Below, piece after piece: positions 17,436-37,125 of a DNA stretch of 37,125 bases (its first letter is position 1; each line of letters starts with the position of its first letter). This DNA is from an uncultured Clostridia bacterium (GTDB lineage: Bacteria; Bacillota; Clostridia; UBA1381): positions 1-37,125 of the forward strand of contig CANQQS010000008.1 of assembly GCA_947626045.1 (NCBI GenBank), read 5' to 3'. Below the pieces are notes generated by a model. That model was not told the DNA's origin, searched no databases, and worked only from the letters and a program-made list of their open reading frames with translations. A program made the position numbers and the translations under genes.

Positions 17436-17500
17436 GTAGGGGCGACCCTTGCGGTCGCCCGACGGATTTCTTTTCGGGCGACCGCAAGGGTCGCCCCTAC
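17436..17500. repeat. Perfect 26-bp-arm inverted repeat (MITE/REP-like palindrome)
   Basis: GTAGGGGCGACCCTTGCGGTCGCCCG - 13 nt - CGGGCGACCGCAAGGGTCGCCCCTAC. Confidence 0.85.
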
Positions 17501-17546
17501 AATTCAACATAATTTATTTAATACGACAAACGCATTAAAAACGATT

Positions 17547-18902: not shown

Positions 18903-18950
18903 TTTCGTATATCCTCCTATATTTTGTATGAATTACATTTATTATCATAT

Positions 18951-18979
18951 ATTCTATACTATTTTTGCCAATAAATCAA
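18951..18979 (-). promoter_or_regulatory. Putative pgi promoter (TTGATT-17-TAGAAT)
   Basis: Reverse strand TTGATT, 17 nt, TAGAAT, upstream of AGGAGG and ATG at 18902. Confidence 0.5.
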
Positions 18980-19016
18980 TACAAAATTTGAATTTTTCTC
19001 ATAAGTTTTTAAACAC

Positions 19017-19050
19017 TGCAAAAAGACAGCCGTAAAGAGCTGTCTTTGCA
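19017..19050 (-). terminator. Terminator at the 3' end of the 19-28.6 kb gene block
   Basis: Reverse strand AAAGACAGC-TCTTTAC-GGCTGTCTTTTTGCA hairpin with T tract. Confidence 0.7.
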
Positions 19051-19126
19051 TATAGGTTATTTCCGTTTCAAACAGCTTTATTGCTAACATTCTCATTTCA
19101 GCCGCTTTGAAGGCGCATCCGAGTAA

Positions 19127-20209
19127 TCAGCGGATACCGGCAAACCTGTCTATTTTTTGAGCATATAGAATAAACCACTGCAGTTCATCGCTGTCTTCGT
19201 CTTTCAGCACACATATGCCTATCGAATTATAATCCTCGTCAGCAAGATAAGTGTCATCGGTGAGCAGTTTTCTCAGTGCCTCATCAACGCTTTCCGGTCC
19301 TTTTAATATAGTCATATTCACTTCACTATATTCGTCACCGGCGTCTGACTTTATGGCATCATATATGTTATACGGTAAATCGTACGGAGCCTCGGCATCC
19401 CTCGTCAGCATATCATTATTGTATTCATATGCGATACTGTCTATGTGCATATCCAAATCAAACTCATCAAGATTTATTGCCGTCCGCGCCCGATTTAACA
19501 TGGTATAAAGCGAAGCTTCAAGCTTGTTGTCCCTTTTCCTTTGCGTATTCTGCGCAGTGGGAGCCGCAGTCGGCGCTGCAGTAGGTTTCGTTGTCGGCTT
19601 TGCGGTCTGCTTTGTCGTCTGCTTTGTGGTTTTTACAGGTATAGTAGTTGCGGTGTTCCTCTTGTTAGACAACGAGAAAATTGCCACAACGAGTATAACA
19701 ATTCCCAAAAGCACGCCTATAGCAATCAGCACGGCTTTTTTTGTGCCTTTTTTGCGGCGTTCTTTTTTCTGTGCCGCTTCTTTTATTTTTTCATCTTCTT
19801 TTTGTTTTTGCTCGTTCAGCCGGCGAATACGCTCCTGCTCCGCTCTTACACTAGCCATATCCGAGGATTCGTTTTCATTCTTTCGCTGTTCTTCGGCAGC
19901 ACGCTCTTTTTCGCGCTGTTCCTGTGCATGGCGTTCCCTTTCTCGTTGTTCTTCGGCAAGACGTTCCCTCTCCTTTTCCTCCGCCGCGGCGCGTTCCTGC
20001 TCACGCTGCTTGACTTCATACGCTGCCGCCGCTTTTTCGCTTTCCTCTTTTCTATGTTTTTCCCATTCCTCGCGGTCGGTGTCGTTTATAATCGGATCAC
20101 CGTACAAATCAAGATCACTGCCGCACTTTTCACAGCGTACCACACCGGCGTTGTTTATAGTTCCGCAATGCCTGCATTTGATATGCTTATAACCTCCGTT
20201 TATTGACAT
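19127..20209 (-). CDS. Zinc-ribbon / charged coiled-coil / TM protein with C-terminal CAP(SCP)-like domain
   Basis: N-terminal CRHCG...CEKCG, RE/AEEQ-rich coiled coil, TM AVLIAIGVLLGIVILVVAIFSL, TTKPTAAPTAAP linker, C-terminal LYTMLNRARTAINLDEF...SIGICVLKDEDSDELQWFILYAQ resembling a divergent CAP fold. Confidence 0.6.
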   Translation of the reverse strand: MSINGGYKHIKCRHCGTINNAGVVRCEKCGSDLDLYGDPIINDTDREEWEKHRKEESEKAAAAYEVKQREQERAAAEEKERERLAEEQRERERHAQEQREKERAAEEQRKNENESSDMASVRAEQERIRRLNEQKQKEDEKIKEAAQKKERRKKGTKKAVLIAIGVLLGIVILVVAIFSLSNKRNTATTIPVKTTKQTTKQTAKPTTKPTAAPTAAPTAQNTQRKRDNKLEASLYTMLNRARTAINLDEFDLDMHIDSIAYEYNNDMLTRDAEAPYDLPYNIYDAIKSDAGDEYSEVNMTILKGPESVDEALRKLLTDDTYLADEDYNSIGICVLKDEDSDELQWFILYAQKIDRFAGIR

Positions 20210-20289
20210 GTTGAATACACCCCCATATATTTATTCAAGTCTCTTGGGATCGGGACCGTACATATTCGGACTCGGATCCCCTTCTTAAA

Positions 20290-22107
20290 TTAATTTCCTG
20301 CCATAAACTGCGCTTGGCAAATACCGGCGCCGAAATATTCACGATTGCCCATGTCCACGCAGTAGTCCTGTATGTATTTCTTCACCTGCTCAGGTGACGC
20401 ATCCGGCACTATCAGCTTTACCATTGCCGCGAGAGCCGTTATATGAGGAGCCGCCATTGATGTTCCGTTCTCAAATTCGACATGAATACCGTTGTCCAAA
20501 ACATTCGTTCCTCTTAAGCCGTCGTCCTGTTTCTGCCAATCCATATCCCTTAAAATTTCGCTGACGTCGCTGTCGTCCTTCCAGTAACTCAAAATATCCA
20601 CTCCGGGTGCGGCAACGGAAACAGAGTCGCCGTAGTTTGAGAAATCGGCAATGTTATGATTCGCGTCATACGCAGATACAACGATACAGTCCATTATCCT
20701 TGAGGGGCTGTAGTTTGCCGTGTCGTCCGACTTGTTGCCCGCCGCTGCAACGACCGTTACTCCCTCTTTAATAACTTTTTTTACAACATAATCATATTCC
20801 GCGCTGGCGAATCCCGATAGGCTGAGATTGATTACATCCGCTCCGTGTTCGGCGGCATATTCGATACCGTTAAGAATCGTAAGAGTATTGCCTATGCTGT
20901 ACTGGATAACACGAACCGGCAAAATGTTCACATTAAGCCCCTGTGTCGCGTCGAGCACAATTCCGGCGACGTGTGTGCCGTGACCGTTGACAGCGTCTGT
21001 GCCGTCACCGCCTATAACGCAGTCATAACCGGGTAAAATTCTGTCCTCAGTTTCCGCATTCGGCACAACTCCGCTGTCAACCACAGCCACAGTCACACTG
21101 TTATCGGTGTAATTTTCATTGAGCCACGCGTCAAGGCAGTCAAGTCCGAGGTCTATCACGCCCCATGAATAATATGTGTAACCGCTGTAATTCGAAATAT
21201 ATTGCTCATTGTACTCCTGACCGGTCGTGGGCGCGGTGACGCCGCTGTCGGTAAAATTTTGGTATGTATCCTCCTCAATATATTGCACGCCGTCAAGCTG
21301 CTTGAGCGCTTCCATACAGTGCCGCGCATCTTCCTCATTTTTGAATTGTATTACAACTCTGTTATCCTCACGCCATATTACTTTGTCTGCCGGAAAATCG
21401 CTTAAATCGAGTTTACTTCCCTCAAATCTAAGCATAATCCTGTTCGTGGGTCGTTCTCCCGAAATTACCTGCTCGTCGTCGTATTGATTTTTAAGCTCGT
21501 TAAGCCGCTCTTCGAAATCGTCTGCGGACACGGTTCTCTTAAGCTCCGTATTGTCTCCGACCTTTACAGCGGCAGCGCTTCCTCTGAAAATTATAAGCAG
21601 TGCAACAGCAGCCACCACCGCCGCAGCAGCAATGCAGACCGTAACTATCGGCAGCACACGGCGTTTCTTCTTTTTCTTCGCGCCGTTATCCGGCTGCCGC
21701 GTTCCCTTGTTATTATTTCCTTTCGCGGTTCTCTTTTCTGTCTCTTTGTCGTCCTCTTTATCCGACGATTCCAGTTCACGCAGAGCGGAAACAGCGTCCG
21801 CACTGCCGAGTTCCGCGGCCTTTTGGTACCATTTGACGGCTGTCGGTATTGATTTCTTCACAGCCCAGCCGTAACGGAACATCTGCGCCATGGCAAGGAC
21901 GGACGGTATGTGGTCGGCATTCGCCGATTTTTCCATTAGCCATACCGCTTCTGCCGCATCGTACCCTTTTTGGTATTTTGAGAGAAGATTGTCGGCAAGG
22001 TAATACTGAGCCGTAGGGTCGTTTGCGGCAGAGCGGTACCACTCCAGTTTTTTTTCGTCGATATTTTCCCCTTCCCATACTTTCAGTTCGTCATTGTACA
22101 TTATCAT
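20290..22107 (-). CDS. SEL1-repeat / TM / S8 subtilisin-like protease
   Basis: SEL1 repeats (AVKWYQKAAELGSADAVSAL), TM VLPIVTVCIAAAAVVAAVALLIIF, catalytic triad AVVDSGV / GHGTHVAGI / NGTSMAAPH. Confidence 0.9.
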   Translation of the reverse strand: MIMYNDELKVWEGENIDEKKLEWYRSAANDPTAQYYLADNLLSKYQKGYDAAEAVWLMEKSANADHIPSVLAMAQMFRYGWAVKKSIPTAVKWYQKAAELGSADAVSALRELESSDKEDDKETEKRTAKGNNNKGTRQPDNGAKKKKKRRVLPIVTVCIAAAAVVAAVALLIIFRGSAAAVKVGDNTELKRTVSADDFEERLNELKNQYDDEQVISGERPTNRIMLRFEGSKLDLSDFPADKVIWREDNRVVIQFKNEEDARHCMEALKQLDGVQYIEEDTYQNFTDSGVTAPTTGQEYNEQYISNYSGYTYYSWGVIDLGLDCLDAWLNENYTDNSVTVAVVDSGVVPNAETEDRILPGYDCVIGGDGTDAVNGHGTHVAGIVLDATQGLNVNILPVRVIQYSIGNTLTILNGIEYAAEHGADVINLSLSGFASAEYDYVVKKVIKEGVTVVAAAGNKSDDTANYSPSRIMDCIVVSAYDANHNIADFSNYGDSVSVAAPGVDILSYWKDDSDVSEILRDMDWQKQDDGLRGTNVLDNGIHVEFENGTSMAAPHITALAAMVKLIVPDASPEQVKKYIQDYCVDMGNREYFGAGICQAQFMAGN

Positions 22108-23395
22108 CTTCTCCCCTCGAAGGATAATATACGGTGAACGCGCACCAGAACACGATGCAGAAAATACAAGTGGATATGAACGCGCCTATATTGCCAATGC
22201 CTCCTATGGTAGTCGCCGCAAGCGTTGTCACTGTGCCGCTTATAAGACTGCCTAGCAGCATTCGCCGCGACACGGAACGATACATAACCCACGAAGCAAT
22301 CATTCCGTACAGTATGAACATAACCAAACGAACGATTATTTTCCACAGATTCAGATCGTCATATCCGTAAGGCAAATATCCGTCTCCCGTCTTTATTCTT
22401 AACGGACCGTGTTTTGAACCGATCCGCTCTCTTTTTTGGTTATCATTCGGATCATTCACGCCGTCATCCTCATACGCTTCACGCAGCGCTTGGAGCAGAT
22501 TGTCGGGGTTAAAGCTGTTTTTGTCAAGCTGCGTCTCAAATCCGCCCGTTGACTCGGCAAATTCTATTATTTCTCCCCTCATTTCCGGATTTTCAACACT
22601 CTCTTCTGTGTCTATGCTTATCACGTAAACGGGGATTCCTTCTTCTTTATATGTCTTCCGTATGCTGTCGCTGACCTCGCTGTCGCCGTCCGTCATCAGT
22701 ATTACCGCCTTTTTCTTCGCGCCGCTGTCGGAAAGCGTGTTATACGCAGTTTCAAGCGCGGCGTTAAAATCGGTTGTACCTATGTGGTCGGTGCGGTTTA
22801 TGGCAGCTTTAAGACTTCTTTTGCCCGTTTGGTCAAGAGTTGTAATATCGGTACATTCATAAACCACCGACGTAAACGCTATATACTGCATGGCGGTATC
22901 GTCGCCGAGCTCGTCAATGAGTTCACAAGCAGCCGACTTGCATATTTCCGTTTTATCACCGTCAGCCGACTGAAAATCCCGCATACTGCTCGAAAAGTCC
23001 AAAAGCAGAGACACATTTGTCACCGCGTCGTCCTGTTTCGGAGCGGCTGTGGGCTCTGTTATCGGAGCGGGTTCCGCCTCCACGGTATTCCTCGTAAAGT
23101 CAAGCGCATACAGCATTTCACCGCCGCAGCCGACTATTGCCGACAAAACAAACGCGCATATAAACGAAACAACCCTGTTTCCCTTCCGATGTATTATGTA
23201 TTTCTTGTTATGTATATATTCCGCAAGCGCCATACCGATCAGAGAAAAAATCAGAGGCAGAGTAAAATACATGCCGCTCAATATCACAGGTTCAAGCTCC
23301 GATGAAAAACCCAGAGCCAAAGCCGGCAAAGCCGCGGCAAGCGACAGTACCATTGTAAACAAGAGCATAAGCCAGTCGAATTTAAGACGCCTCAT
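22091..23395 (-). CDS. Membrane-anchored vWA-domain protein
   Basis: N- and C-terminal TM helices flanking vWA with MIDAS LLLDFSSSM ... GTTDFNAAL ... VILMTDGDSE. Confidence 0.88.
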   Translation of the reverse strand: MRRLKFDWLMLLFTMVLSLAAALPALALGFSSELEPVILSGMYFTLPLIFSLIGMALAEYIHNKKYIIHRKGNRVVSFICAFVLSAIVGCGGEMLYALDFTRNTVEAEPAPITEPTAAPKQDDAVTNVSLLLDFSSSMRDFQSADGDKTEICKSAACELIDELGDDTAMQYIAFTSVVYECTDITTLDQTGKRSLKAAINRTDHIGTTDFNAALETAYNTLSDSGAKKKAVILMTDGDSEVSDSIRKTYKEEGIPVYVISIDTEESVENPEMRGEIIEFAESTGGFETQLDKNSFNPDNLLQALREAYEDDGVNDPNDNQKRERIGSKHGPLRIKTGDGYLPYGYDDLNLWKIIVRLVMFILYGMIASWVMYRSVSRRMLLGSLISGTVTTLAATTIGGIGNIGAFISTCIFCIVFWCAFTVYYPSRGEDDNVQ

Positions 23396-23406
23396 TCAAA
23401 TACCTC

Positions 23407-24534
23407 CTATCCGATTTTCTGAGGACTCCAGTAATTGCTTCCTATGTAGTCCGCGAACCCTGTCTGTATTCCATGCCAGATTTCCTCGCCGGCAGGCAGA
23501 GACAGGTATCCCTCACCGCTGTTTCTTATCGCTGAAAACGTGTGCAGGACGGGTATATGACAAGCCACCGGATTGTAGCCTGCGTATCTGCCGTCAGGTA
23601 TAAATACGGGTCTGCCGTATTCGTCGCGGTCGTCAAGCTCCAATCCGCCGTATATCTGTACCTGACACATATCCGCGGTCATTCCCGCCTGCTCGAATAT
23701 TTCTCCGTACATTCTGCGGCATTCCTTGTAAAGCCCTGTTCTCACGCTTCCGGAAAGCTCCGCATCCGCTTCGGAGTCACGGTAATGCTCCGTATTCTCA
23801 AACTGCGATATTATAAGCTCAACCACTCTCTTTTTAAGCGCTTCGCCGTATGACAAGAGAATCTGCTTTACCATACCCTCATACTCCGTTTCCGCATGTT
23901 CGGAAATCGAGCCCGGCACGAGAATCCACACCGCATTTGCCTGATTTATATAACGGCTTATATCCGCGTCGGGCGTCACACATATGAAATTCATTTCAAG
24001 CGCCTTGTTGGGGTAGCCGGACTTGTGTATGCTGAATCTCAGGCGGCAGTTGCTCGGCGCGTTTCCCTTGTATACGGGCCACTTTATATCAGTCGTTAAG
24101 CCGTTAAAGCAATTTTCTATTCCTATTTTTATCTCGGACATTACCGGCATGGTTTCCTCGGAAAGAGAACATGCCATGCCGCTTTTGACAAGCGTGTCCT
24201 CTGTATTCTGCCACATCGAGCAAAGGAAGTCCTCGGCGATTTCCAATGTTTCTCCTATAATGAGAGCATCAAGCCTTCCGTCGGGCATTGCTCGAAACTC
24301 CGGTGCTTCATACGGCGGAATGTCGGGCATCGGATAGGCATCGGAATTTACACTCACTTGCTCCTCATGGTTTTGATTTGTGTCGATTGGCGTAAACGGC
24401 TCAGGTTTTACATTATCCGCCGGTTGGTACGGTGGCTGAACCGTATCATTCTTTTCCTTTCGTTTGAACCAGCTTATCCTTTTTTTCTTTTTCCCGTCCC
24501 GCTCGCCGTCTATCCCCATAGTACCAAACGGCAT
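23407..24534 (-). CDS. Conserved-looking hypothetical, possibly a degenerate (P-loop-less) GTPase-fold protein
   Basis: ORF in the same-strand block; LDALIIGETLEIAEDFL, ANAVWILVPGSI and VVELIISQFE strands resemble GTPase core strands without a P-loop. Confidence 0.5.
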   Translation of the reverse strand: MPFGTMGIDGERDGKKKKRISWFKRKEKNDTVQPPYQPADNVKPEPFTPIDTNQNHEEQVSVNSDAYPMPDIPPYEAPEFRAMPDGRLDALIIGETLEIAEDFLCSMWQNTEDTLVKSGMACSLSEETMPVMSEIKIGIENCFNGLTTDIKWPVYKGNAPSNCRLRFSIHKSGYPNKALEMNFICVTPDADISRYINQANAVWILVPGSISEHAETEYEGMVKQILLSYGEALKKRVVELIISQFENTEHYRDSEADAELSGSVRTGLYKECRRMYGEIFEQAGMTADMCQVQIYGGLELDDRDEYGRPVFIPDGRYAGYNPVACHIPVLHTFSAIRNSGEGYLSLPAGEEIWHGIQTGFADYIGSNYWSPQKIG

Positions 24535-24565
24535 GTCAATCCAGCTCCTTCCAAAAATATATGTG

Positions 24566-25240
24566 TCAAGAATTTATAAATTTCTTTTCAAATTCGGTCA
24601 GGGTGATAACATATTTCGGCTGTTTTCTCCACACGCGCCCCTCACCGAAATATCGGCTTAAATCCTGCCACGATTCCGCCGTCACCGCGAAACGCAGCAA
24701 ATCCTTCTCGTTGAGTATTCCGTTCTCGCGTTTTAGTATCTTTGCAATCATCTTGCCACCCGCGCTTGACGACAGCAATTTAAAATCTATTCTTTCACTG
24801 CCTGCCGTCATATAATTCAAAAAGCGGCTCACGTCTATTCCGTACCCGAAGCTTCCTCCAACGGTCATACATGCGGACAGCATCCGGCAAAATTCCGTAT
24901 ATCTTCCCAGAACAAACGCCGCGACATTCTCAAGGTCTCCGCACTCGTCGCTTCCCGCCCTGAAAACGATATTGACAATTCCCCGTCTGCCGCCGAAACT
25001 CGCTTCAATTCGCCGTATACCGAGAATCCCGCCGCACGGCTCGGGGAACAGCGCGCCGCTTTTTAAGGGATATTCGCGCCACAGAACTTTGAAACGGTCG
25101 TACGAGAAGAAATCCCAAACGTCGGCAGGCAGATTTACGCCCATGCTTCCATCTGCCGGAATCAGACCGTTTTCGGTAAGGCACGACGGAAAGAAACCCC
25201 TTGCCGAATTCTCATATGTGCAGTAAAAATAAATGTCCAT
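24566..25240 (-). CDS. Hypothetical protein, possible GTPase-associated protein (GAP1-N-like)
   Basis: MDIYFYCTYENSARGFFPSCLTENGLIPADG...; sits directly downstream of a GTPase gene (14 nt gap); family assignment tentative. Confidence 0.4.
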   Translation of the reverse strand: MDIYFYCTYENSARGFFPSCLTENGLIPADGSMGVNLPADVWDFFSYDRFKVLWREYPLKSGALFPEPCGGILGIRRIEASFGGRRGIVNIVFRAGSDECGDLENVAAFVLGRYTEFCRMLSACMTVGGSFGYGIDVSRFLNYMTAGSERIDFKLLSSSAGGKMIAKILKRENGILNEKDLLRFAVTAESWQDLSRYFGEGRVWRKQPKYVITLTEFEKKFINS

Positions 25241-25254
25241 ATTATCCCCTTTTA

Positions 25255-26292
25255 TTACAGCCTTCCCGCATTATCCTGTATGACAAGGAAACCGTCATCT
25301 GAATACGGACCGGTACCCTTCTTCATCTTCTTGCGCAGTATCTCGAGCGGATAAATCAACTCATTCCTGTTTATTTTCAATGATTTGTTTGATGTGTTTA
25401 TCTCTTCAAGCGTTTTCGAAAGAATGTATACAAGCGAGTATATCATGGGCTGCTCGCAGAATTTCGGAGCGTAGCCGCGCTCGTAGTCCTTAAGAAACTC
25501 GGCTTCCTGATACAGCGACACGACTTTGCCCGTTTCCGAATCTTTTTTGAAATGCACAAAATCAATACCGCCCGCGGAAAGTATCGGCGTAATTGCTATA
25601 GAGCAGCCCATAACAAGCTGCGGCGACGATCTCAGATAGTGAATAAGCTCTCTGTACCCGTCGCCTACCGCGTTTACAAGCTCCTGCATATAATTGCGCC
25701 TGAACGCGTTAAGCTCAATCGTGTGGGTAAGATGATAGTATCTCTCGCACTTTATCGGCACGAAAAGTATAAGACGCTCGGAAATATCGTCAACGGTAAG
25801 ACTGTTCTTGAAGAAATTCGTAATCTGCATGGGTTTATTGTATTCCTCGTGATAAATACCGTAGCCCTTATCATTCATCATCTTTGCGAACAGGTACGGA
25901 GTATCTATCGCGATTATGATAACTTGACAGTTGTGGATAAGATTTTTCACCTGTGCCTGATGATTGTCCGTCAGCCATTCTCCCGGTATATCATGTATTG
26001 AAAAAGCTATACCCTTACCTGAATTAAGCCTGATTCCGAACGAGTATGTTTTTTGCGCGTCGCTCGGATTGTCATCGACTTCCACGCGCGTCAGCGGTTT
26101 ATTGAATACGTCAAGCTTCTTTCGGATATTTTCGGTCGCGCGCATAAGCTCTCTCTGCGTCTGCTCGTTCAGTATGTCAAAGCTGAGATCCGTTCCCGCA
26201 AGCGCCTTGCCTATCTCGCTGCACATCGAGGCAAGAACTGTCGTCTTGCCGCATCTTTTTCCTCCGAGCATTAATATATTTATATCGTTCAT
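25255..26292 (-). CDS. P-loop GTPase-like protein (TRAFAC-like, double-GTPase-2-type candidate)
   Basis: MNDINILMLGGKRCGKTTVLASM (Walker A), SIHDIPGEWL (DxxG), QVIIIAIDTPYL, ERLILFVPIKCE. Confidence 0.7.
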   Translation of the reverse strand: MNDINILMLGGKRCGKTTVLASMCSEIGKALAGTDLSFDILNEQTQRELMRATENIRKKLDVFNKPLTRVEVDDNPSDAQKTYSFGIRLNSGKGIAFSIHDIPGEWLTDNHQAQVKNLIHNCQVIIIAIDTPYLFAKMMNDKGYGIYHEEYNKPMQITNFFKNSLTVDDISERLILFVPIKCERYYHLTHTIELNAFRRNYMQELVNAVGDGYRELIHYLRSSPQLVMGCSIAITPILSAGGIDFVHFKKDSETGKVVSLYQEAEFLKDYERGYAPKFCEQPMIYSLVYILSKTLEEINTSNKSLKINRNELIYPLEILRKKMKKGTGPYSDDGFLVIQDNAGRL

Positions 26293-26310
26293 TTATCTTT
26301 CCTCCCAAAA

Positions 26311-28596
26311 TCAAAAATGCAAAGTTCCCGCCATGTCTCTCATGAGCAGCTTTGTACCGTTGTACTTTGTGATAATTTCATTGACGTCCTTATATCTGTC
26401 CGCGTTATCCTCCCACAGCTTCTGACTGTACTGCATGAAGAAGTTGCCCCATACCATGCTCATATCCGTGAAGCTGTTTTCGTCGCTTTTGTTGTCAAAG
26501 TTAATCGCAAATGTTATTCTGTCGTAAAACTCCTCGGCAGCGGCGTAAAATGTCTGGTTCGGACGTCTGTACAGCTGGGAAAGCGAATGTCTGAGTTCGT
26601 CCTCTATAACCGCGAGGCGCGACGTGAGATAATAATGCACCTCGTCGCCGGCACTGCTTGCACGGAACACGTACTGAGGCGGCACGTAGTAATCCTCGGC
26701 AAGCGGATTGAGTGTGTAGAGCTGCTTTCTCACTTCCTGAATTACATTTTCCTTTATGCTGAATTCAAAATTGTAAAGGAATTGGAATGCCTTGTAAATC
26801 TGCGTGTACTGCTCCTGTCCGCCTATGACGTTGTCCATCATGTTTTTGAGCCATGCGAGCATATCCACATCATCGCCGCCCTCGTCCGACCCGCTTGTCT
26901 GCTGCGAGAATATATTGTTAAGCGCGTAATACATATGCTTTACAAGAGAGTTTTTAAACTCAAGCGTTTCTTTCTGCATCGCCCCGTCGATTTCGTTGAA
27001 GCTGTCGGTTATCTCATTGCGGACATAGTTGCACGCCGCCTCCCACAGAGCGTTTGGCATCATTGCGCCGTTCTTGTTTATAATTTCCTGCAGCTCGTCG
27101 GCGCTCGGCGCAACGCTGTCCATCTTGTTCAGGATAACCTGTACCTTGCTCCACAACGCGCCGTTTGACTGATTTCTTTTCTTGCTCCAATCGGACACCT
27201 GGCTTTTAAGCTGCGCCGTCATATCCTTGTATGTTTTCTGACCCATCATAAAAGCCTGCTGCGCTATTGCCTGACCGACGTTCTTCTCCTTTATCTCCGG
27301 CAGCTCCGTTACCATTTTGTTGACCATATTAATTAATTTGCTGCCGATTGAGTTAATATTTTCCAGATATTTTGCGTCGATTTCATCCATATTCCGCGTA
27401 AGCGTGTCAAGAAGCGGCATCATAAAATCATTATTTACCGCGTCCTTGTCGGAGCAGTCAACCTTTTTGCAAAAGCATATATCGAAATTGTTATTCTTTA
27501 CTCCGTTCAGAAACGCGTCTACTGCGTTATCGTTTACGCCTTTATGCAGATTTGCTATGTAGAAAAGCCATTTTCCCATCGCTCTGTCCGAAAAATTATC
27601 CCGAAGCGTCTGATACAGCTTTATATCCGGGTCGTGTACATCAGATATAGGCTTTGTCACAACAATGGCGGCGTCGCAAAGCTTATCCACGGTGTCAAGC
27701 ATCGCCTTGTCAATGCCGACCTGCGTATCGCCTATACCTATAGTATCTACAAGAACAATCTTGCCGCAGTCCTCGTAAAAGCGGCAGGATATTTCCGCTC
27801 TGCCTACGGCGAGATAATTGTAATAGTATTCCACATCGGGGTCGGTGGCTTTCTTGCCGTTGTTCTGTGCTACATACGACTTTATCAATTCAGGGTCGGT
27901 AAGCGTTATTGAATGACTTCCGAAAAGCGGGCTTATCTCATCGAAGTTATCTATTATGTCCTGAAGGTGCTTTAAAGCTATAGACTTTTCAGCCTCGTCA
28001 TTGCGTATCTTGCCTTTAAGCTCGGTAATAATATTTGCGTCGTCAATATCGTAAAAGCCAAATTCACTCGTTAGATATGGAGAAGACGGATCTATCTGCT
28101 TTATATATTCTTTAACGGTTTTAACAAGGTCTGACTGCTGTTTAAATGTTATAAGCACAGACACCGTTTCGGGCGCCATTTCAGGTCTGTTATATATGAC
28201 GGAGGTGGCGCCTGTACAGTCGCTCGCGTCATAGGCGGGAATAATTTCGTTGCCGAGGTTTCCGACTGCCTGAAGGAATCGGCTCTTGCCCTGACGCGCC
28301 ATTCCAACCGTGGCAATGGCAATATGATCACGCTCAAACCGCGCTATTGCGTTATTTATAAGATTATTGTACCTTTGCAGCTCTTTTCTCAGCGCGCCGG
28401 TGCTTATACTGCCGAACTCCGACGCGTAATCGCTGCGAATCTCGGCATCTGGCAGGTTTTCCACCTCTTTCTTGTAGCTTTCCAACGAAGCGATATACGA
28501 TTGCAGTGTTTTAACGCTCTCTCTGCTCTGTCTCAGCCTGTCCGCTTTTTTCTTGCGCTCCGCCAGGATACTGTCAATTTGATCCTTAACTGCCAT
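26311..28596 (-). CDS. Dynamin-like / large GTPase
   Basis: GMARQGKSRFLQAV (G1), DCTGATSVIYN (G2), VLVDTIGIGDTQ (G3), AAIVVTKPISD (G4-like), long helical C-terminal half. Confidence 0.8.
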   Translation of the reverse strand: MAVKDQIDSILAERKKKADRLRQSRESVKTLQSYIASLESYKKEVENLPDAEIRSDYASEFGSISTGALRKELQRYNNLINNAIARFERDHIAIATVGMARQGKSRFLQAVGNLGNEIIPAYDASDCTGATSVIYNRPEMAPETVSVLITFKQQSDLVKTVKEYIKQIDPSSPYLTSEFGFYDIDDANIITELKGKIRNDEAEKSIALKHLQDIIDNFDEISPLFGSHSITLTDPELIKSYVAQNNGKKATDPDVEYYYNYLAVGRAEISCRFYEDCGKIVLVDTIGIGDTQVGIDKAMLDTVDKLCDAAIVVTKPISDVHDPDIKLYQTLRDNFSDRAMGKWLFYIANLHKGVNDNAVDAFLNGVKNNNFDICFCKKVDCSDKDAVNNDFMMPLLDTLTRNMDEIDAKYLENINSIGSKLINMVNKMVTELPEIKEKNVGQAIAQQAFMMGQKTYKDMTAQLKSQVSDWSKKRNQSNGALWSKVQVILNKMDSVAPSADELQEIINKNGAMMPNALWEAACNYVRNEITDSFNEIDGAMQKETLEFKNSLVKHMYYALNNIFSQQTSGSDEGGDDVDMLAWLKNMMDNVIGGQEQYTQIYKAFQFLYNFEFSIKENVIQEVRKQLYTLNPLAEDYYVPPQYVFRASSAGDEVHYYLTSRLAVIEDELRHSLSQLYRRPNQTFYAAAEEFYDRITFAINFDNKSDENSFTDMSMVWGNFFMQYSQKLWEDNADRYKDVNEIITKYNGTKLLMRDMAGTLHF

Positions 28597-28669
28597 AGTT
28601 GCTTTTTCCTCCTTTTTTCATGTCCGCCGATCTGTTCCGCAACGGTTCTCATTCTAATATTTATATGTA

Positions 28670-28700
28670 ATTCTATCACACATAATAAGATTTTTGTCGG
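28670..28700 (-). promoter_or_regulatory. Possible extended -10 promoter upstream of the dynamin-like gene
   Basis: Reverse strand TGaTAGAAT extended -10, weak CCGACA -35 with 19 nt spacer. Confidence 0.35.
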
Positions 28701-28714
28701 TTTTATTTCCGCAT

Positions 28715-28754
28715 AAAAAAATATCCGCGCCGCAAGAAGCGGACACGGATATGT
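28715..28754 (-). terminator. Rho-independent terminator after the lipoprotein gene
   Basis: Reverse strand ATATCCGTGTCCGCTTCTTGCGGCGCGGATATTTTTTTATG. Confidence 0.8.
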
Positions 28755-28756
28755 TG

Positions 28757-29422
28757 TCAGTTTAGCGACACGCGCCGTTCGTTTATGTTGTTTTCTATTT
28801 CGTCAAGATGCTTTGTGTATTCCCTGTTGATTTCGTCATGACTGTAAAGCCACTCGCAGTTTTCGGGAATTACCGCGGGATATTTGTATATCATATCCTT
28901 CATACAATCAGCCGCGTCTCCGCCTGCACCGGATACCAAATCCATTGCACCGTACACAAGGAACACTTTTTCAAGCTCAAGCCTGTCCTCAAATAAATCG
29001 GACAGTATTTTAAGGGTTTCGAAATCAGCTGTTTCCTGTATGCTGTCCTTAAACATTAAATTTTCCATGCTCTCTCTCTGCGAATAGAAGAGATAATCAT
29101 AGTCTGTCCTCGGTATATTCATGCTGTCCATTACGTCATACTCTCTGTCTCCGATATTGGACTGTACAGAAGCGCTCTCTTCCGCGGCAGCATCGCTTTC
29201 AGCCGCAGCGGCGTTCAGCTTTTCCATATTCTCGTCCGTCGGATTTTCCGTGTATGCTCGAATTGCCAGCACTGTGTTTTCGTATGCCTCAAACACTGCA
29301 TTGTCGCTCCTTATAACCTGCTCCAAATCGGGTATTATTTTATCCCTGTACACATCGCTTGTGTTCGTTGCACAGCCCGCAAGCAAAACGGCCGTCAGTA
29401 ATAAAAAAGATAATTTCTTCAT
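28757..29422 (-). CDS. Predicted lipoprotein, uncharacterised
   Basis: Lipobox signal MKKLSFLLLTAVLLAGC; helical body; ATGA overlap with the upstream kinase gene. Confidence 0.75.
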   Translation of the reverse strand: MKKLSFLLLTAVLLAGCATNTSDVYRDKIIPDLEQVIRSDNAVFEAYENTVLAIRAYTENPTDENMEKLNAAAAESDAAAEESASVQSNIGDREYDVMDSMNIPRTDYDYLFYSQRESMENLMFKDSIQETADFETLKILSDLFEDRLELEKVFLVYGAMDLVSGAGGDAADCMKDMIYKYPAVIPENCEWLYSHDEINREYTKHLDEIENNINERRVSLN

Positions 29423-32211
29423 GTTTCGTCTCCTTTTATTTCACTCATTATTGACTCAAGATAATTCATGCGAAGCTCAAGGCTGTGCACCGAGTTTTCC
29501 AAATCAGCAGTGCTTATTTCGAGCGCGCCGTTAAAATCCATAACAACGTCGCCGCTGCCCTTCATCGCTTCTTTTATAACGCCGCCGCCCTTTTCGCTGA
29601 TTGTTCGCGTCAAGAGACACAGCTCATAGCCCATAAGCTTCTCGCAGCAGGATATATACTCGCTGTAATAACCAAGATTCCTTTTTACAGTATCGGCGTC
29701 ATATCCCGATTCGGGCGACAGCGCATGTTCGAGTCTTTCAAACATATCCTTCTGAAAAGCTCGGTGTTCCCGTGACATTGACAGTATTTTGTCAACACGC
29801 TCGGTATCCAGACCCCTGTACGCCTTTTCATCAAGATTTTCTATCGTGACAGCCGCGTCTCCGAGTGCATCAAGCCTTTCTCCCGCTTCTCTTACAGATT
29901 CCGTGCCGGATGTCATATCGTTCGATTCAAGCTCCTCGATAAGATTTTTCTCGCTCGACGTCATTTGAACAACATTGTTAAGCGAAACCGCAACCGTTGT
30001 CATAATCTCGTAATTGTTTTTCTCCTCGCGGCGTCCGAGCGGGTGCGTTCCGGGCATAAACCGGTATGTAACCGCAGATGCGCAAAGACAGACCGCAATA
30101 ACAGCGGCGGTTAAAGGTACGCGTACTCCCATTGCCGCTTTTCTGTACCGTTTTGAATTTTCCTTGTTCACGGGTGACAGGCAGTCGCAAAAATTCATAT
30201 GCGCCGCGCTGTAAACACCTTTCTCGTTTTTAAGAAGCGCGGTATCGCGCACAAGTATTCCCTCCGCGGCTATGTTCATCCACTCGTCCGCGTTCTTCGC
30301 GCCGCCGAGAATTTCATCCGTCTTGCCGGCAAACTCCCTAAACGCGCGTGAAAAGGCGCGCGATTTAAGACGTCTGTAGTCGGCGGCACACACCGAACGC
30401 ACGCCGTCAAAATTCACATTCGCTCCGCCTTTCATGGAAGCGCATATTTCCGGAAACAAATATTTAAGCACGTAATTCAGTCTTGTCTGCCCGCATTTGT
30501 CATTGGGCGCAGCCCTGCGGTACGATTCGGATATACTGTCAAGATAACGGTTTATTATCTCACTTTCTGTCGTACAATTCTCCTTTGCGGCGCTGCTTTC
30601 GCGGAATACCGTTTCCGACTTTACGTACAAAGTGAGCATCAGCGGATTTGTCAAAAGGCGTGCTGTGTTCTCGTCCTCCGGATATGCGGCGCCGTGACTG
30701 TTCACATATTGCCGCGCCTGCTCATTTTCAATAGGTAAAAGTGTTACCGGCACAAAATTTTCAAGATATTCTGTCAGCGTGTCTCTTCTGAGCGACACGG
30801 ATACGGTGACAGCCGACATTTTGCTCAATTCGTTTATCTCGAGTATTATACCGCCGCTGTCTTTTATCTCATTGAAGCCGTCAAGCATCAGGTACAAAAG
30901 CGGTTTGCTGCCCCGCATCAGTTCGTCAAGTCTGTTTACGGCATCGGAAACCGTTGACACGCCATTACCGAAGCGTATTTTTGAAACAATATATCTCTTT
31001 ATAAAATCACTTTTTCCGTCGTACTCGTTAAGCGGCACAATAAAACCTATCGGTTTATCCGGCATGTACGCGCGCGTATTTTCGTACAGTATGCGTCGGT
31101 ACAGCGTAGTTTTTCCTATTCCGCCGTCACCGGAAAGCACGGTGTTTCCCATCGTTATAAGCTCGGTTGACGGAATAATCCGTCCGCCGCCCATGACATT
31201 ATTGTCGATAAGCTCTTTTTCCTCATCGCCGCATATGACACGGCTTGCCTCCCACAGGCTCGCGCGCGTGACTCCGACATTTAAAAGCCTGTTTTCCAAT
31301 TCCCTGCACGCGTGCAGCATTTCTTCCGCCGAAGCAAATCTTAAAGACGGTCTCGACCTAAGTCCCTTTGCGAGTATACCCATCAGGCAACTCACCGCGG
31401 TCGGTGGCGCGTTCTTTAAAATCGGTGAATTTAAAAGTTCCTTGTCGTTTAACGCGGCATACACAAAATCACGTCCGCTTATCATAAACACAAGTGTTGC
31501 GCATACCGAAAAAATATCCGAAGCCTCGGATATGTCATTCCTTCTGCCAAGCTTGATTTCAGGTGCGGAGTATGTTGGATTGACGCTCATGTATTCGCCG
31601 TCCGAGCCGTTAAAGTCAATGAGAAGCACGCGCTCGTCACCGTTGGCATGCGGTATGATTATGTTGTCGGGACTTATGTCGAGATGAAGTATTCCCTTTT
31701 TATGCAGCGCTCCGACAGCTTTTAAAAGCTTTATAGCAACGCGCGTTACATCTTTAAGCGTTTTTATGTCTCCGCACCGCCTGCGCAAAGTATACGCGGA
31801 ATTTAATCCAAGCAGAGAATACACGGTATTGTTTGCCTCGAACGAATCATAATTCGCTCCAACGCTGTCGGGGTCGGCTTCAAGTATTTCCAAATGTGTT
31901 TTATTACCAAGAATAAAGCTTTTTTTTCGCGACTCGAAAAACTCCTCCGCACCGTCATAACGTATCGAGCCGTCTTTATCACGGTAAACGGCATTTTTCG
32001 GGTGAAGCGGGAAAAGCTCCTTTACAATACATATATGCTTTCCTCCGCTTATAAGCGTGTCGTCATATTCGGTCTTGTACGCAAGAGAAACGCCGCCGCG
32101 TCCGATAAGCTCCGTTACGCGCAGATTTTTACCGTTATAAGTTATCGCAGTGCCGTTTTTTATAGGCTCTCTGTTATCATTCACAGCGTCCTCACTTCTT
32201 TCATTATCCAT
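29419..32211 (-). CDS. Ser/Thr protein kinase fused to NACHT/STAND-type NTPase, with TM helix and C-terminal helical region
   Basis: Gly loop LIGRGGVSLAYK, VKE lysine, HLDISPDNI catalytic loop, LLIDFNG (DFG position); P-loop VLSGDGGIGKTTLYRR and Walker B LLYLMLDGFNEI; TM VPLTAAVIAVCLCASAVTYRF. Confidence 0.85.
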   Translation of the reverse strand: MDNERSEDAVNDNREPIKNGTAITYNGKNLRVTELIGRGGVSLAYKTEYDDTLISGGKHICIVKELFPLHPKNAVYRDKDGSIRYDGAEEFFESRKKSFILGNKTHLEILEADPDSVGANYDSFEANNTVYSLLGLNSAYTLRRRCGDIKTLKDVTRVAIKLLKAVGALHKKGILHLDISPDNIIIPHANGDERVLLIDFNGSDGEYMSVNPTYSAPEIKLGRRNDISEASDIFSVCATLVFMISGRDFVYAALNDKELLNSPILKNAPPTAVSCLMGILAKGLRSRPSLRFASAEEMLHACRELENRLLNVGVTRASLWEASRVICGDEEKELIDNNVMGGGRIIPSTELITMGNTVLSGDGGIGKTTLYRRILYENTRAYMPDKPIGFIVPLNEYDGKSDFIKRYIVSKIRFGNGVSTVSDAVNRLDELMRGSKPLLYLMLDGFNEIKDSGGIILEINELSKMSAVTVSVSLRRDTLTEYLENFVPVTLLPIENEQARQYVNSHGAAYPEDENTARLLTNPLMLTLYVKSETVFRESSAAKENCTTESEIINRYLDSISESYRRAAPNDKCGQTRLNYVLKYLFPEICASMKGGANVNFDGVRSVCAADYRRLKSRAFSRAFREFAGKTDEILGGAKNADEWMNIAAEGILVRDTALLKNEKGVYSAAHMNFCDCLSPVNKENSKRYRKAAMGVRVPLTAAVIAVCLCASAVTYRFMPGTHPLGRREEKNNYEIMTTVAVSLNNVVQMTSSEKNLIEELESNDMTSGTESVREAGERLDALGDAAVTIENLDEKAYRGLDTERVDKILSMSREHRAFQKDMFERLEHALSPESGYDADTVKRNLGYYSEYISCCEKLMGYELCLLTRTISEKGGGVIKEAMKGSGDVVMDFNGALEISTADLENSVHSLELRMNYLESIMSEIKGDET

Positions 32212-32251
32212 GGCTTAAACTGTAATCTCAAGGATAATTTAACATATGCGT

Positions 32252-33373
32252 TTACGCGTCGGTCGGATTTGTTTCCGCAAATATTCTGCTCACAAGCTCC
32301 TGCATTTCGCCGAGTATCTCGTCGGAATTGTTCATCTTTACCGCGTAAAGCGCCGCCCAGTCAAAAACGCTGCGCGGATCGGGCAGAGCCATGCCGCAGT
32401 CGGTAAGCATTATGCACAGTCTGTCATAGTGTTCGCCGAACCGCTCGGCGGGCGTAAGCTCATCGTCTATAACAAAGTCATAATTTACCTCAGGCGCTAT
32501 TCCCTCCGTTATTATGTACAGCAGAATAAGCGATTTTCTCGTTATGTCCTCGGAACGACTTATCATACTCTTTATGCTCGTCGCCGACGGCCAGTATTTT
32601 TTTATCATTTTCTGAATATATGTATACTTCCCGCTCGTGCTGCCAAGCGGCACATTCATTCGTATATACCGCTCGGTTATCTCGTCAACCGAAAACCGCT
32701 CCGACTTTGGCGCAGCACCGCCCCAAAATTCTCTTTGCTGCGCCTCCGGATCGCGCAGACATTCTATAAACGTCATAAAATATTTGTACGCCGTATTGTG
32801 CAAAGCTCCGAACTTATTTATATTTTCAAGATAAAATTTTTTAAAATCCGGTACGGACGATATGTACCGAAACTCATTGTAGAGTGGCTCGGTATACACC
32901 GTTTCGTCAATGTTGTCGGGCAGCGGCGGAAGCGACTCATACAGCTTCACCGCATCGGGATAGCTCATGCCGGTTCTCAAAGCAAACGCGTATGTAAGCT
33001 CTCGCGGGTCTCTGTAGTGAAAACCGCAGTCTGACGAGCAGCACAAAAAATCCTGCGCCCTGCTTTCATTAAGCCCGAGTGCAAAGCATATCCTCATATA
33101 CGTTTCCCTGTCCGACGGCTCGCCGCCGCCAAACCAGCCGCGAACCTTTCTAGACGCACTGTCGCGGCTTAAAGACGGCGAATACTCACAAAGCGCGTCG
33201 GTGAGGATTTTCTTTACATCACCGCCGTCGGAAAATTCTCTGAGAGTTTCGCTGAATGTGCGAAGCTTCAGAGATTGATTCATGTATTCAAAAGCTTCGT
33301 CCGCCGTCATGCAGACGTTTGCTATGTGGTCATATTCGTTTTGAGAGAGCAGTGTTATATCCATTGTTATCAT
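32252..33373 (-). CDS. Uncharacterised protein with XRE/HTH-like N-terminal region
   Basis: LSRDSASRKVRGWFGGGEPSDRETYMRICFALGLNESRAQDFL resembles an HTH core; remainder alpha-helical. Confidence 0.5.
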   Translation of the reverse strand: MITMDITLLSQNEYDHIANVCMTADEAFEYMNQSLKLRTFSETLREFSDGGDVKKILTDALCEYSPSLSRDSASRKVRGWFGGGEPSDRETYMRICFALGLNESRAQDFLCCSSDCGFHYRDPRELTYAFALRTGMSYPDAVKLYESLPPLPDNIDETVYTEPLYNEFRYISSVPDFKKFYLENINKFGALHNTAYKYFMTFIECLRDPEAQQREFWGGAAPKSERFSVDEITERYIRMNVPLGSTSGKYTYIQKMIKKYWPSATSIKSMISRSEDITRKSLILLYIITEGIAPEVNYDFVIDDELTPAERFGEHYDRLCIMLTDCGMALPDPRSVFDWAALYAVKMNNSDEILGEMQELVSRIFAETNPTDA

Positions 33374-33385
33374 CCCGCAGACTTT

Positions 33386-34426
33386 TTATTTTAGTGTTTC
33401 GGCGAATTTATGCGCATGACGGGTAAGACGCTCACGCGTCTCGTCCGACATGTTGAATATGCTCGTAAACGGCTTTGAAAACGGCTTCATTCCAAAGCTT
33501 ACAAGCAATGAGTGAAGAATGTTGGCGCCCTCGCCGCTCCAGCCGTGTGAGCCGAATGTGAAAAACGGCTTGTGGCGCATAAGTACGGCGTTTACGCCGC
33601 ACAGCACGCGCGTGACGCTTTCAGCCGCGCCGCGCTCGTATGTGCCCGTTCCGGCTATTATCGCCGAAAAGGTGTTAATATCGGGCGCGTCATTCTTGTC
33701 CGCATCGCATATTTTAATGGTCACTCCCGCGTCTTCCATTTCGGCGCGTATACACTCCGCCATTTCACGTGTTACGCCGTAGTGTGACGAGTACAGAATA
33801 AGCACGGTTTTATTTTTCTCCCACTCGCGGTATTTGTCAAGCAGTCCGCCGTAAAAATCGAATGCCGTTTGAATATCCGCGCCGCGTAAAACATCACTGT
33901 CAGCGGGCATGACCGCCGTTATTTTAAGCTCCGACAGCCTTTTAAGTGCGTTTTCCACGTAGTCGGGGTACGTCATAAGGTTCTCGCCTTCCGAAAACAG
34001 GTCGCAGCTAAAGAGCGTGCCGCTATTTTCCTCATACGTTACCATGCTATCGGGCCAGCTGAGGTTTGGAGTTATTATAAATCGCAGCACTGCGCCGTTT
34101 CCGAGTTTGAGCAGCGCGTTATCCTTAGCCGCCTGCTCACGGAACGGTCGGCTGTACATTTCCTTTAAATTCCTTATACCCGCCACGGTGGCGATAACCT
34201 CCGCGTCAGGATAACTTTCCAGTACCGCGCTGAGTCCGTATGACCTGTTAGGCTCGGTGTGATTTAAAATCACATAGTCAAGCGGTCTGCCGCTTAAAAT
34301 TTCCGCAATATCGCGTACAAGCGCGTCCTCGCCGCCGCGCGGCGCGGTGTCGATAAGCGCGGCTTTGCCGCCTATAACAAGGTACGCGCTGCCGATATGA
34401 TATATAATATTCTCACTTACTTGCAT
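33386..34426 (-). CDS. Flavodiiron (FprA-like) protein with degenerate di-iron site
   Basis: SAYLVIGGKAALIDTAP, LNHTEPNRSYG, ITPNLSWPDSMVTY, LFSCDLF, flavodoxin VLILYSSHYGVTREMAE; likely start 34426 (MQVSEN). Confidence 0.75.
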   Translation of the reverse strand: MQVSENIIYHIGSAYLVIGGKAALIDTAPRGGEDALVRDIAEILSGRPLDYVILNHTEPNRSYGLSAVLESYPDAEVIATVAGIRNLKEMYSRPFREQAAKDNALLKLGNGAVLRFIITPNLSWPDSMVTYEENSGTLFSCDLFSEGENLMTYPDYVENALKRLSELKITAVMPADSDVLRGADIQTAFDFYGGLLDKYREWEKNKTVLILYSSHYGVTREMAECIRAEMEDAGVTIKICDADKNDAPDINTFSAIIAGTGTYERGAAESVTRVLCGVNAVLMRHKPFFTFGSHGWSGEGANILHSLLVSFGMKPFSKPFTSIFNMSDETRERLTRHAHKFAETLK

Positions 34427-35382
34427 ACGACCGACGCCCAATCCTTTCTGCGGTTTATTTCGGTTATGACGAAGCCGTTTTCAGTAAGCGCCGCCGTCAC
34501 GTCGTCTATTCTGTCCTCAATGATGCCCGACGTTATAAATACCGCACCGTCAGCCATGTACTGCCTTACGACCGGAGCGAGACCGATTATAACGTCGGCT
34601 ACGATATTCGCGCACACGACGTTATATTTGTTCTTCGAGATTTCGGCTTGCACGTCCTTATCTGTCACGACGTTGCCGCTTATGACGGTATAGCGCGACT
34701 TGTCTATACCGTTGCGCTCGGCGTTTTGGTACGCCGTATCGACCGCATTCGGATCGATGTCGACCGCAACGGCTTCGTCCGCGCCGAGCATAAGTGCAAT
34801 AATCGAAAGTATACCGCTGCCGCAGCCGAGGTCGAGCATTTTATCGCCTTTTTTTATACATTTTTCGAGCGTTTCGAGACAAAGCTGCGTCGTGTAGTGC
34901 GAACCCGTGCCGAAGCTCATTCCCGGCTCTATGTTGAACACAATGCGGTTGGTAGGCTCCGTAAGCTCCTCCCATTCAGGTTTTATCATTATTTTTTCTC
35001 CTATTTCCATGGGGTGGAAGTATTTGCGCCAGTTATTCGCCCAGTCCTGCTCGGTCATGCCGTCCATGTCAAGCTCCAAGCGTCCGAACGCACCTTCGGT
35101 GTCGAGCTGTTTAAGCTCCGCAAGCGTTGATTTTATACCGAGAAGCAGCTCGTGTCCGGCTATGTCGTCGCTTATGTACGCCTTAACCTTAGTTTCACCG
35201 TGCATTTTCTCGACAAGCTCATCGTCCACGTAGTCCCAGTACGCCTTACTTTCCTCAATAAAATCGTCAAATTCCTCCGCATCCTCTATTTCAAGTCCCG
35301 TTATGCCGAGTCGGTACAGTCTGCCGCTTACCGGCTCTATACCGTCATGCGATGTGTATATTGTCACCTTTATCCAGTTCAT
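34417..35382 (-). CDS. prmA: Ribosomal protein L11 methyltransferase
   Basis: MNWIKVTIYTSHDGIEPVSGRLYRLGITGLEIED, GMSFGTGSHYTTQLCLE, MLDLGCGSGILSIIALMLGA, VVCANIVADVI. Confidence 0.95.
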   Translation of the reverse strand: MNWIKVTIYTSHDGIEPVSGRLYRLGITGLEIEDAEEFDDFIEESKAYWDYVDDELVEKMHGETKVKAYISDDIAGHELLLGIKSTLAELKQLDTEGAFGRLELDMDGMTEQDWANNWRKYFHPMEIGEKIMIKPEWEELTEPTNRIVFNIEPGMSFGTGSHYTTQLCLETLEKCIKKGDKMLDLGCGSGILSIIALMLGADEAVAVDIDPNAVDTAYQNAERNGIDKSRYTVISGNVVTDKDVQAEISKNKYNVVCANIVADVIIGLAPVVRQYMADGAVFITSGIIEDRIDDVTAALTENGFVITEINRRKDWASVVCK

Positions 35383-35438
35383 ATTTATCCTCCGTTATAT
35401 AAATACGAGGCGGCACAAAATATACCGCCCCTATAAAA

Positions 35439-36596: not shown

Positions 36597-36600
36597 TACT

Positions 36601-37125
36601 TTATTCCTCCCAAGTATTTTTTCCCGCCGAAAGTGTTTCCCTTTCCTTAAAAAGTTTTGACAGCTCCGCAGGATTTGTTTCTTTTTTTATTTTTAAATCA
36701 AGCTTTTCAAGCCTGATTGTATACAACAGTTCTCTGACGGTCGCTTCGTCGCCGTCATAGACTTCGAGGTTGTAGAACACGCTGCTTGCGGCGCTCAAAT
36801 CATTGCCCTCAAAGTCGTTCAGTATCAGCGCCGGTTCGGGCGTTTCGCCGTTTTCAAAGCTTTGGTACATTCGCTTTGCAATCCGTCTGTAAACATCGGT
36901 TGAAAAATCGTCGGGGTTCATTTCTCCGCTTACTGTTTTGTACAGCTTGCGGCTTCTCGATATAAGTCCCAAAAGCCGTCTCTCGGCTTCCATGAGTTTT
37001 GAAGACGTGTTTTCCGTTTTGACCGTTTGGCGCGTTTCGCGCTCCGTCCGCTTTTGGTACTCGCTCTTTTGCGGTATACGGCTGCGGAACGTATTGCGCG
37101 ACGATTTTTCGCGGTATTTCGCGAG
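36601..37125 (-). CDS. dnaG: Partial DNA primase DnaG, C-terminal region
   Basis: Frame is open from the right edge ([16 protein letters not shown]...) through [20 protein letters not shown]...; helical DnaG C-domain, 4 nt upstream of rpoD as in the dnaG-rpoD operon. Confidence 0.85.

What the first reader, a model, noticed from the sequence alone, without database searches (positions are those of the whole stretch)
29419..32211. Membrane-spanning Ser/Thr kinase - NACHT NTPase fusion
One 930-aa polypeptide carries a kinase domain (catalytic HLD..N intact, DFN in place of DFG), a GDGGIGKTT P-loop with LMLDGFNE Walker B, then a single TM and ~200 aa of helices predicted outside. Kinase-STAND fusions are typical of signalling or immune sensors; the TM plus extracytoplasmic tail suggests envelope sensing.
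Basis: partly seen in the sequence, partly recalled or inferred. Interest (0 to 1): 0.75.

Follow-up and report, generated by a model that had tools for sequence, protein, structure and literature searches.

The report
Membrane kinase–NACHT switch on GTPase island
A gut Clostridia bacterium carries a 14.4-kb gene island in which a membrane-anchored protein, a kinase fused to an immune-receptor-type switch, sits beside its own probable DNA-binding partner and a set of GTPase, adhesion-type and protease genes; it is probably an alarm system against invaders such as phages, but nobody has tested it.

Summary
On the minus strand, 29419-32211 is one 930-aa ORF with a protein-kinase domain (Pfam 48 bits), a NACHT NTPase (27.4 bits, just above cut-off), one transmembrane helix (residues 696-714) and a ~210-aa helical tail. 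A 42%-identical homologue in a goat-caecum Clostridia MAG keeps all four parts and the catalytic motifs, including DFN and HLD.

The gene is part of a 14.4-kb island (18982-33397); two same-genus genomes have an empty site there. A strong terminator separates two modules. Module A: Cro/C1-like HTH protein (373 aa), kinase-NACHT, lipoprotein. Module B: large GTPase, DO-GTPase2, a GAP1-positioned protein, extracellular vWA, mycosin-like subtilase. Each also occurs without the other. HTH-kinase pairs recur in Clostridia with NACHT, NB-ARC-TPR or TM-LRR on the kinase. Relatives sit beside LeoA/LeoBC-type dynamins, or BrxL and CBASS-type E1-E2/JAB genes.

Best explanation: a transmembrane kinase-STAND switch reads an envelope or infection cue, oligomerises, phosphorylates its HTH partner and/or the GTPases, and triggers a membrane-acting conflict response. 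Anatomy and mobility are shown; ligand, substrate and defence role are inferred. New variant of known kinds. AlphaFold failed on the 930-aa protein (pLDDT 40).

The parts
18982..33397 (.). Inserted island between the flavodiiron-type flavoprotein gene (33386-34441) and pgi (17547-18902): ten minus-strand genes, no integrase
   Evidence: blastn against G008 (L073) aligns window 17547-18981 and 33398-37125 to adjacent stretches 17 bp apart; G009 (L075) has the same order; G005 (L074) carries another element at this place
32252..33373 (-). HTH partner, 373 aa: Cro/C1-like HTH at about residues 37-116 plus a long helical C-terminal part
   Evidence: 58% identical homologues; hhalign 96.7% to short HTH proteins paired with kinases; AF2 residues 40-190 mostly pLDDT 80-93, top matches include HTH repressors such as DdrO and CI, Z 4.5-4.6
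29419..32211 (-). Kinase-NACHT-TM protein, 930 aa (P0001), the finding
31297..32151 (-). Protein kinase domain, residues about 21-305; K64, D178, N183, D199 kept; non-RD (HLD), DFN
30694..31140 (-). NACHT NTPase core, Pfam match residues 358-506 (Walker A at 361-369, Walker B at 441-448)
30070..30126 (-). Single transmembrane helix, residues 696-714, N-in/C-out by charge
29422..30054 (-). Extracytoplasmic helical tail, residues 720-930; fast-evolving, over 500 aa long in the homologue
28757..29422 (-). Lipoprotein, 221 aa (lipobox LLAGC); start codon overlaps the kinase stop by 4 bases
28714..28752 (-). Intrinsic terminator ending module A
   Evidence: RNA fold -20.7 kcal/mol, z -5.4, followed by a T run
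26311..28596 (-). Module B: large GTPase, 761 aa, weakly dynamin/IRG-like
   Evidence: Pfam Dynamin_N 20.1 bits, below cut-off 27; 58% identical orthologue in G326
25255..26292 (-). Module B: DO-GTPase2, 345 aa (GGKRCGKTT, DIPGE)
   Evidence: Pfam PF19993 30.8 bits, cut-off 27; 72% identical orthologue
24566..25240 (-). Module B: 224-aa protein in the GAP1 position, family 'FYCSY'
   Evidence: No Pfam match; hhalign 96.9% to proteins beside tandem DO-GTPases in G109/G406
23407..24534 (-). Module B: 375-aa protein, no known domain
   Evidence: 38% identical orthologue in G326
22091..23395 (-). Module B: vWA protein with three N-terminal and two C-terminal TM helices; vWA (DFSSS) predicted outside
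   Evidence: Pfam VWA 45.9 bits; hydropathy
20290..22107 (-). Module B: Sel1-TM-subtilase, 605 aa, mycosin-like, triad present, protease predicted outside
   Evidence: Peptidase_S8 126 bits; NCBIfam T7SS_mycosin 137.6 bits, below cut-off 278.75
19127..20209 (-). Module B: zinc-ribbon-TM protein, 360 aa

Best explanation
The protein is a transmembrane, NLR-like receptor kinase. The helical tail outside the membrane, probably with the co-encoded lipoprotein, reads an envelope or infection cue. The NACHT domain then exchanges nucleotide and oligomerises, bringing the N-terminal kinase domains together so that they activate in trans. The activated kinase phosphorylates its dedicated HTH partner, releasing or recruiting it on DNA, and/or the adjacent GTPase module. 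Module B (large GTPase, DO-GTPase2, GAP1-positioned protein, extracellular vWA and subtilase) carries out a membrane- or envelope-directed conflict response. Shown: domain anatomy, topology by charge, conserved HTH-kinase pairing, island status, two modules with a terminator between them. Inferred: oligomerisation, substrate, cue, defence role.
For: Kinase and NACHT domains, catalytic motifs and TM conserved at 42% identity in a distant family. HTH partner adjacent there too and about 57% identical, better conserved than the kinase-NACHT. HTH-like gene directly upstream of a kinase in 7 of 10 loci found from the HTH side, plus a divergent neighbour in an eighth; two kinases found from the kinase side also have a divergent HTH neighbour. 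STAND-fused kinases (NACHT and NB-ARC) group together with one other kinase, support 96/95, and share a non-RD, DF[N/D] active site. Island with empty site in close relatives. Module B conserved in order in G326. Neighbours of relatives match defence models: LeoA/LeoBC-type dynamins (91 and 69 bits), BrxL, CBASS-type E1-E2 and JAB. DO-GTPase neighbourhoods are predicted conflict systems with a multi-TM extracellular vWA protein in Firmicutes (PMC7159879). S/T/Y kinases are listed among effector domains at the N-terminus of STAND proteins (PMC8195603). A dynamin-like GTPase delays phage lysis in B. subtilis (PMC8844932).
Against: No structure: AlphaFold pLDDT 40. Module A and module B are separate transcription units by prediction and each occurs without the other, so the functional link between them is not shown. 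No PADLOC model covers the island; kinase hits are generic. Orthologues are very rare (1 of 390 other class genomes, 0 of 397 other phylum genomes). No phage data.
Confidence: 0.5

Rival explanations
1. Module A is an envelope-stress or housekeeping signalling pair (HTH regulator plus membrane kinase with a NACHT regulatory domain), unrelated to defence; module B is a secretion or surface-remodelling machine (vWA plus mycosin-like protease).
For: Short HTH + TM-LRR kinase pairs are spread through Clostridia without defence neighbours seen; the subtilase resembles T7SS mycosin; the G407 HTH homologue sits beside a DUF285 surface lipoprotein with no kinase.
Against: Sporadic, island-borne distribution; defence genes beside relatives; DO-GTPase context.
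Confidence: 0.25
2. Modules A and B only share an integration site; the kinase-NACHT does not control the GTPase/protease genes.
For: Terminator between them with a promoter-like site downstream; G326 has module B without A, G410 has A without B.
Against: Inserted together on one strand in one island; in G410 module A again lies beside GTPases, a zinc-ribbon protein and an M48 protease, a functionally similar set.
Confidence: 0.35
3. The kinase domain is a pseudokinase that works as a scaffold; the NACHT switch alone carries the signal.
For: HRD to HLD, DFG to DFN, HRDxK lysine replaced by serine.
Against: K64, D178, N183 and D199 are all kept in both orthologues, and the same kind of change is family-wide (DFD/DFN, non-RD); active non-RD kinases exist (general knowledge).
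Confidence: 0.15

Closest known systems
HTH + kinase-NB-ARC-TPR pair (R. albus 7 plasmid pRUMAL01 WP_013483441.1/WP_013483440.1; G163; G305), not described in the papers read
   Same: Same gene order, extended HTH partner, kinase domains in one supported group, non-RD DF[N/D] active site
   Different: NB-ARC-TPR instead of NACHT-TM-extracytoplasmic tail
Bacterial NLR-like STAND/NACHT proteins (Avs, bNACHT) with N-terminal effector domains
   Same: N-terminal effector, central NACHT ATPase, C-terminal sensor-like part
   Different: Effector is a kinase and the C-terminal part is membrane-anchored and outside
DO-GTPase/GAP1-N2 conflict systems (Kaur et al. 2020, PMC7159879)
   Same: DO-GTPase2, zinc-ribbon and TM proteins, multi-TM extracellular vWA protein, mobile neighbourhood; kinases reported in an actinobacterial theme
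   Different: No Pfam-detectable GAP1, no FNIII protein, no tubulin, HSP70 or PP2C; large GTPase and subtilase instead
LeoABC / DynA dynamin-type phage defence
   Same: Large GTPases beside module A in G410 match LeoA/LeoBC models
   Different: Window GTPase is only weakly dynamin-like and does not match those models

Membership tests
Protein kinase superfamily (PF00069) | Profile match above curated cut-off | tested here: met
   48 bits vs 31.7; homologue 49.2
Protein kinase superfamily (PF00069) | Catalytic K, D, N and metal-binding D | tested here: met
   K64, D178, N183, D199 invariant; DFG is DFN, HRD is HLD
NACHT / STAND NTPases (PF05729) | Profile match above curated cut-off | tested here: met
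   27.4 vs 26.7 bits, only just; homologue 35.8
NACHT / STAND NTPases (PF05729) | Walker A, DGxxE-type Walker B, sensor-1 Arg, GxP/NPL motif | tested here: met
   GDGGIGKTT, LMLDGFNE, R475, NPLMLTLY conserved; motif roles from general knowledge
NACHT / STAND NTPases (PF05729) | NTPase fold in a predicted structure | tested here: inconclusive
   pLDDT 40
bNACHT / Avs anti-phage NLR-like proteins | Shown phage protection | not testable with these tools
   no experiment possible
DO-GTPase/GAP1-N2 systems | DO-GTPase with conserved glutamate in Walker B | tested here: met
   PF19993 30.8 bits; D101, P103, G104, E105 invariant
DO-GTPase/GAP1-N2 systems | GAP1 protein downstream of the GTPase | tested here: inconclusive
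   224-aa protein in that position, no Pfam match at E<1, related to proteins beside tandem DO-GTPases
DO-GTPase/GAP1-N2 systems | FNIII-repeat protein | tested here: not met
   No FNIII match in any of the ten island proteins
Cro/C1-type HTH regulators (the 373-aa partner) | HTH fold / profile match | tested here: inconclusive
   No direct Pfam hit; hhalign 96.7% to short proteins of which two match Pfam HTH models, one above a cut-off; model residues 37-116 align to HTH repressors, Z 4-5

The most novel reading that the evidence does not exclude
A transmembrane bacterial NLR-like receptor kinase, in which a NACHT oligomerisation switch sits between an extracytoplasmic sensor and a cytoplasmic non-RD kinase, controls a GTPase-vWA-subtilase effector through a dedicated HTH partner: one branch of an undescribed HTH-kinase-STAND family in Clostridia with interchangeable NTPase and sensor parts.
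Probability: 0.35. Interest if true: 0.8.

Novelty: new variant of a known kind. Interest (0 to 1): 0.57.

Why it matters
Bacterial NLR-like proteins studied so far mostly sense inside the cell and act through their own effector domain (general knowledge). Here the NACHT switch is placed between an outside domain and a kinase, and the kinase has a conserved, probably DNA-binding partner, which would link immune-type switching to phosphorylation and to gene control. The recurring HTH-kinase pair with NACHT, NB-ARC-TPR or TM-LRR parts gives a natural series for testing how such receptors are built. Module B gives a compact DO-GTPase system to test for envelope-directed defence.

Tried and rejected
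Lipoprotein fused into the longer tail of the G410 homologue: suspected by eye, not significant (171 of 2000 shuffles as good). Homologues in viral contigs: none with either module A protein. Phage records: kinase-only matches. Genome contigs with P0001 alone: none. Repeats at the island ends: none of 9 bases or more between the two junctions. GAP1 membership of the 224-aa protein by Pfam: no match. Same superfamily for the window large GTPase and the G410 dynamins by profile comparison: only the P-loop stretch aligned, probability 25%. Fold search with the P0001 model was not run, because its confidence was too low. Foldseek with the HTH-partner model gave no E-value under 1.

Full report
Observation. 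The finding's coordinates hold a single 930-aa ORF on the minus strand. Pfam places a protein kinase (48 bits) and a NACHT NTPase (27.4 bits, just above its 26.7 cut-off) in it. PDB sequence matches cover only the kinase part; the best are PknI and CaMK-type kinases. The only long homologue found, L035:8344-12135 from genome G410 (its contig matches JAFQHQ010000141.1, a goat-caecum Clostridia MAG), is 42% identical and keeps the same order of kinase, NACHT (35.8 bits), TM and tail. K64, D178, N183, D199, the Walker A and B motifs, R475 and NPLMLTLY are invariant. DFN and HLD are conserved, so they are traits and not sequencing errors. Hydropathy gives one strong TM near residue 700 with more positive charge on the N side in both proteins, so the tail is predicted outside.

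Structure. AlphaFold with the two-row alignment gave pLDDT 40 and cannot confirm or refute the NTPase core; it shows only that the tail is probably helical. The HTH partner folded better: residues about 40-190 mostly at pLDDT 80-93. Residues 37-116 align with Cro/C1-type repressors (DdrO, TP901-1 CI, C.Csp231I, CapH) at Z 4-5, and Foldseek E-values are all above 1. This is weak alone, but agrees with the profile match to short HTH proteins (hhalign 96.7%), one of which passes the Pfam HTH_26 cut-off.

Island. PrmA of the window is 96% identical in genome G008 and 90% in G009, same genus. In both, the flavoprotein gene is followed directly by pgi; window 18982-33397 is missing, leaving a 17-bp gap in the G008 alignment (sequences). 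In G005 another element with recombinase-like genes sits at the same place. The island is therefore an insertion of the ten minus-strand genes from HTH373 to the zinc-ribbon protein. GC is about 0.45-0.49 across it against about 0.51 in most of the flanks. None of 15 same-genus genomes has the large GTPase or the HTH gene, and their kinase-NACHT hits are partial ones to other kinases or to a NACHT-propeller protein.

Two modules. A terminator (-20.7 kcal/mol, z -5.4, T run) lies after the lipoprotein gene, so HTH373, kinase-NACHT and lipoprotein form module A; the lipoprotein start overlaps the kinase stop. Module B (large GTPase, DO-GTPase2, 224 aa, 375 aa, vWA, subtilase, zinc ribbon) is found in the same order in G326, at 58, 72, 45, 38, 35 and 45% identity for the first six genes and about 25% for the zinc-ribbon protein, without module A. 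G326 gave no HTH373 match and no NACHT match, but is only 79% complete. G410, of the same genus as G326, has module A beside two dynamin-family GTPases, an M48 peptidase and a zinc-ribbon protein. Its contig ends fewer than 200 bases after the kinase, so a lipoprotein gene could not be looked for. G109 and G406 show the core of module B: large GTPase, three DO-GTPase-type genes in a row and two relatives of the 224-aa protein.

The HTH-kinase family. A profile of the HTH partner found ten loci in 391 class genomes. In seven the next gene downstream is a kinase (window, G410, G163, G305, G176, G310, G385); in G014 a kinase-like ORF is the divergent neighbour. G305's kinase gene is split by a frame change as read. 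The R. albus 7 plasmid has the same pair. Starting from the kinase side, two more loci (L030, L031) have a divergent HTH gene. The kinases carry NACHT-TM, NB-ARC-TPR or TM-LRR parts. In an 18-row tree the STAND-fused kinases plus one 1432-aa kinase form a supported group (96/95); a single clade of the five STAND-fused rows alone is not shown. All five are non-RD with DFN or DFD. This argues that the pair is the stable unit and the NTPase part was exchanged or added within it; the tree is small and has long branches.

Function. The R. albus pair lies a few kb from BrxL, E1-E2 and JAB genes, which score 699, 407 and 147 bits against PADLOC models; the G410 GTPases score 91 and 69 bits against LeoA. 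DO-GTPase systems were proposed as conflict systems and described in Firmicutes with a multi-TM, extracellular vWA protein (PMC7159879), which the window's vWA protein resembles. S/T/Y kinases are known in the N-terminal effector place of STAND proteins (PMC8195603). These lines support a conflict function but do not prove it; the proposed chain (cue, oligomerisation, trans-activation, HTH or GTPase phosphorylation) is inference from established STAND and kinase behaviour.

Novelty. Text search in the held library found no bacterial kinase-NACHT fusion under the compound names tried and no description of the HTH-kinase pair under the terms tried; most subscription papers are not held. The parts are known kinds; the transmembrane kinase-NACHT arrangement, its HTH partner and its link to a DO-GTPase/subtilase island appear to be a new variant.

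Noticed in passing
L074 (G005), about 5562-18747: A different mobile element with recombinase/integrase-like genes occupies the same place after the flavoprotein gene, so the site looks like an integration hot spot in this genus.
   Followed up: partly
L028:11576-14563: Kinase-helicase fusion matching Mokosh MkoA (about 590 bits), N-terminus cut by the contig end.
   Followed up: partly
L029:1993-6288 and 6303-6998: A 1432-aa kinase of unusual architecture (HMD loop, no DFG seen) beside a gene that looks like a PP2C phosphatase by eye; it groups with the STAND-fused kinases.
   Followed up: no
L040:9995-12005: HTH373 homologue (58% identity) beside a DUF285/BspA-type lipoprotein and no kinase, close to rpoB/rpoC and to genes that look like a microcompartment cluster.
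   Followed up: partly
L088:4146-14262 and L089:3910-13775: Large GTPase, three tandem DO-GTPase-type genes, two 'FYCSY' proteins and three similar-looking 260-280-aa proteins in both genomes: an apparently undescribed system.
   Followed up: partly
L037:8721-18013: R. albus plasmid pRUMAL01 HTH + kinase-NB-ARC pair near BrxL and E1-E2/JAB genes.
   Followed up: partly
L025:1090-4089: Same-genus locus with a kinase gene next to an ORF that joins a partial kinase N-terminus to a subtilase end; may be a fusion or an assembly join.
   Followed up: no
window 20290-22107: Sel1 repeat (cytoplasmic) joined through one TM to an extracellular mycosin-like subtilase, an unusual architecture.
   Followed up: no
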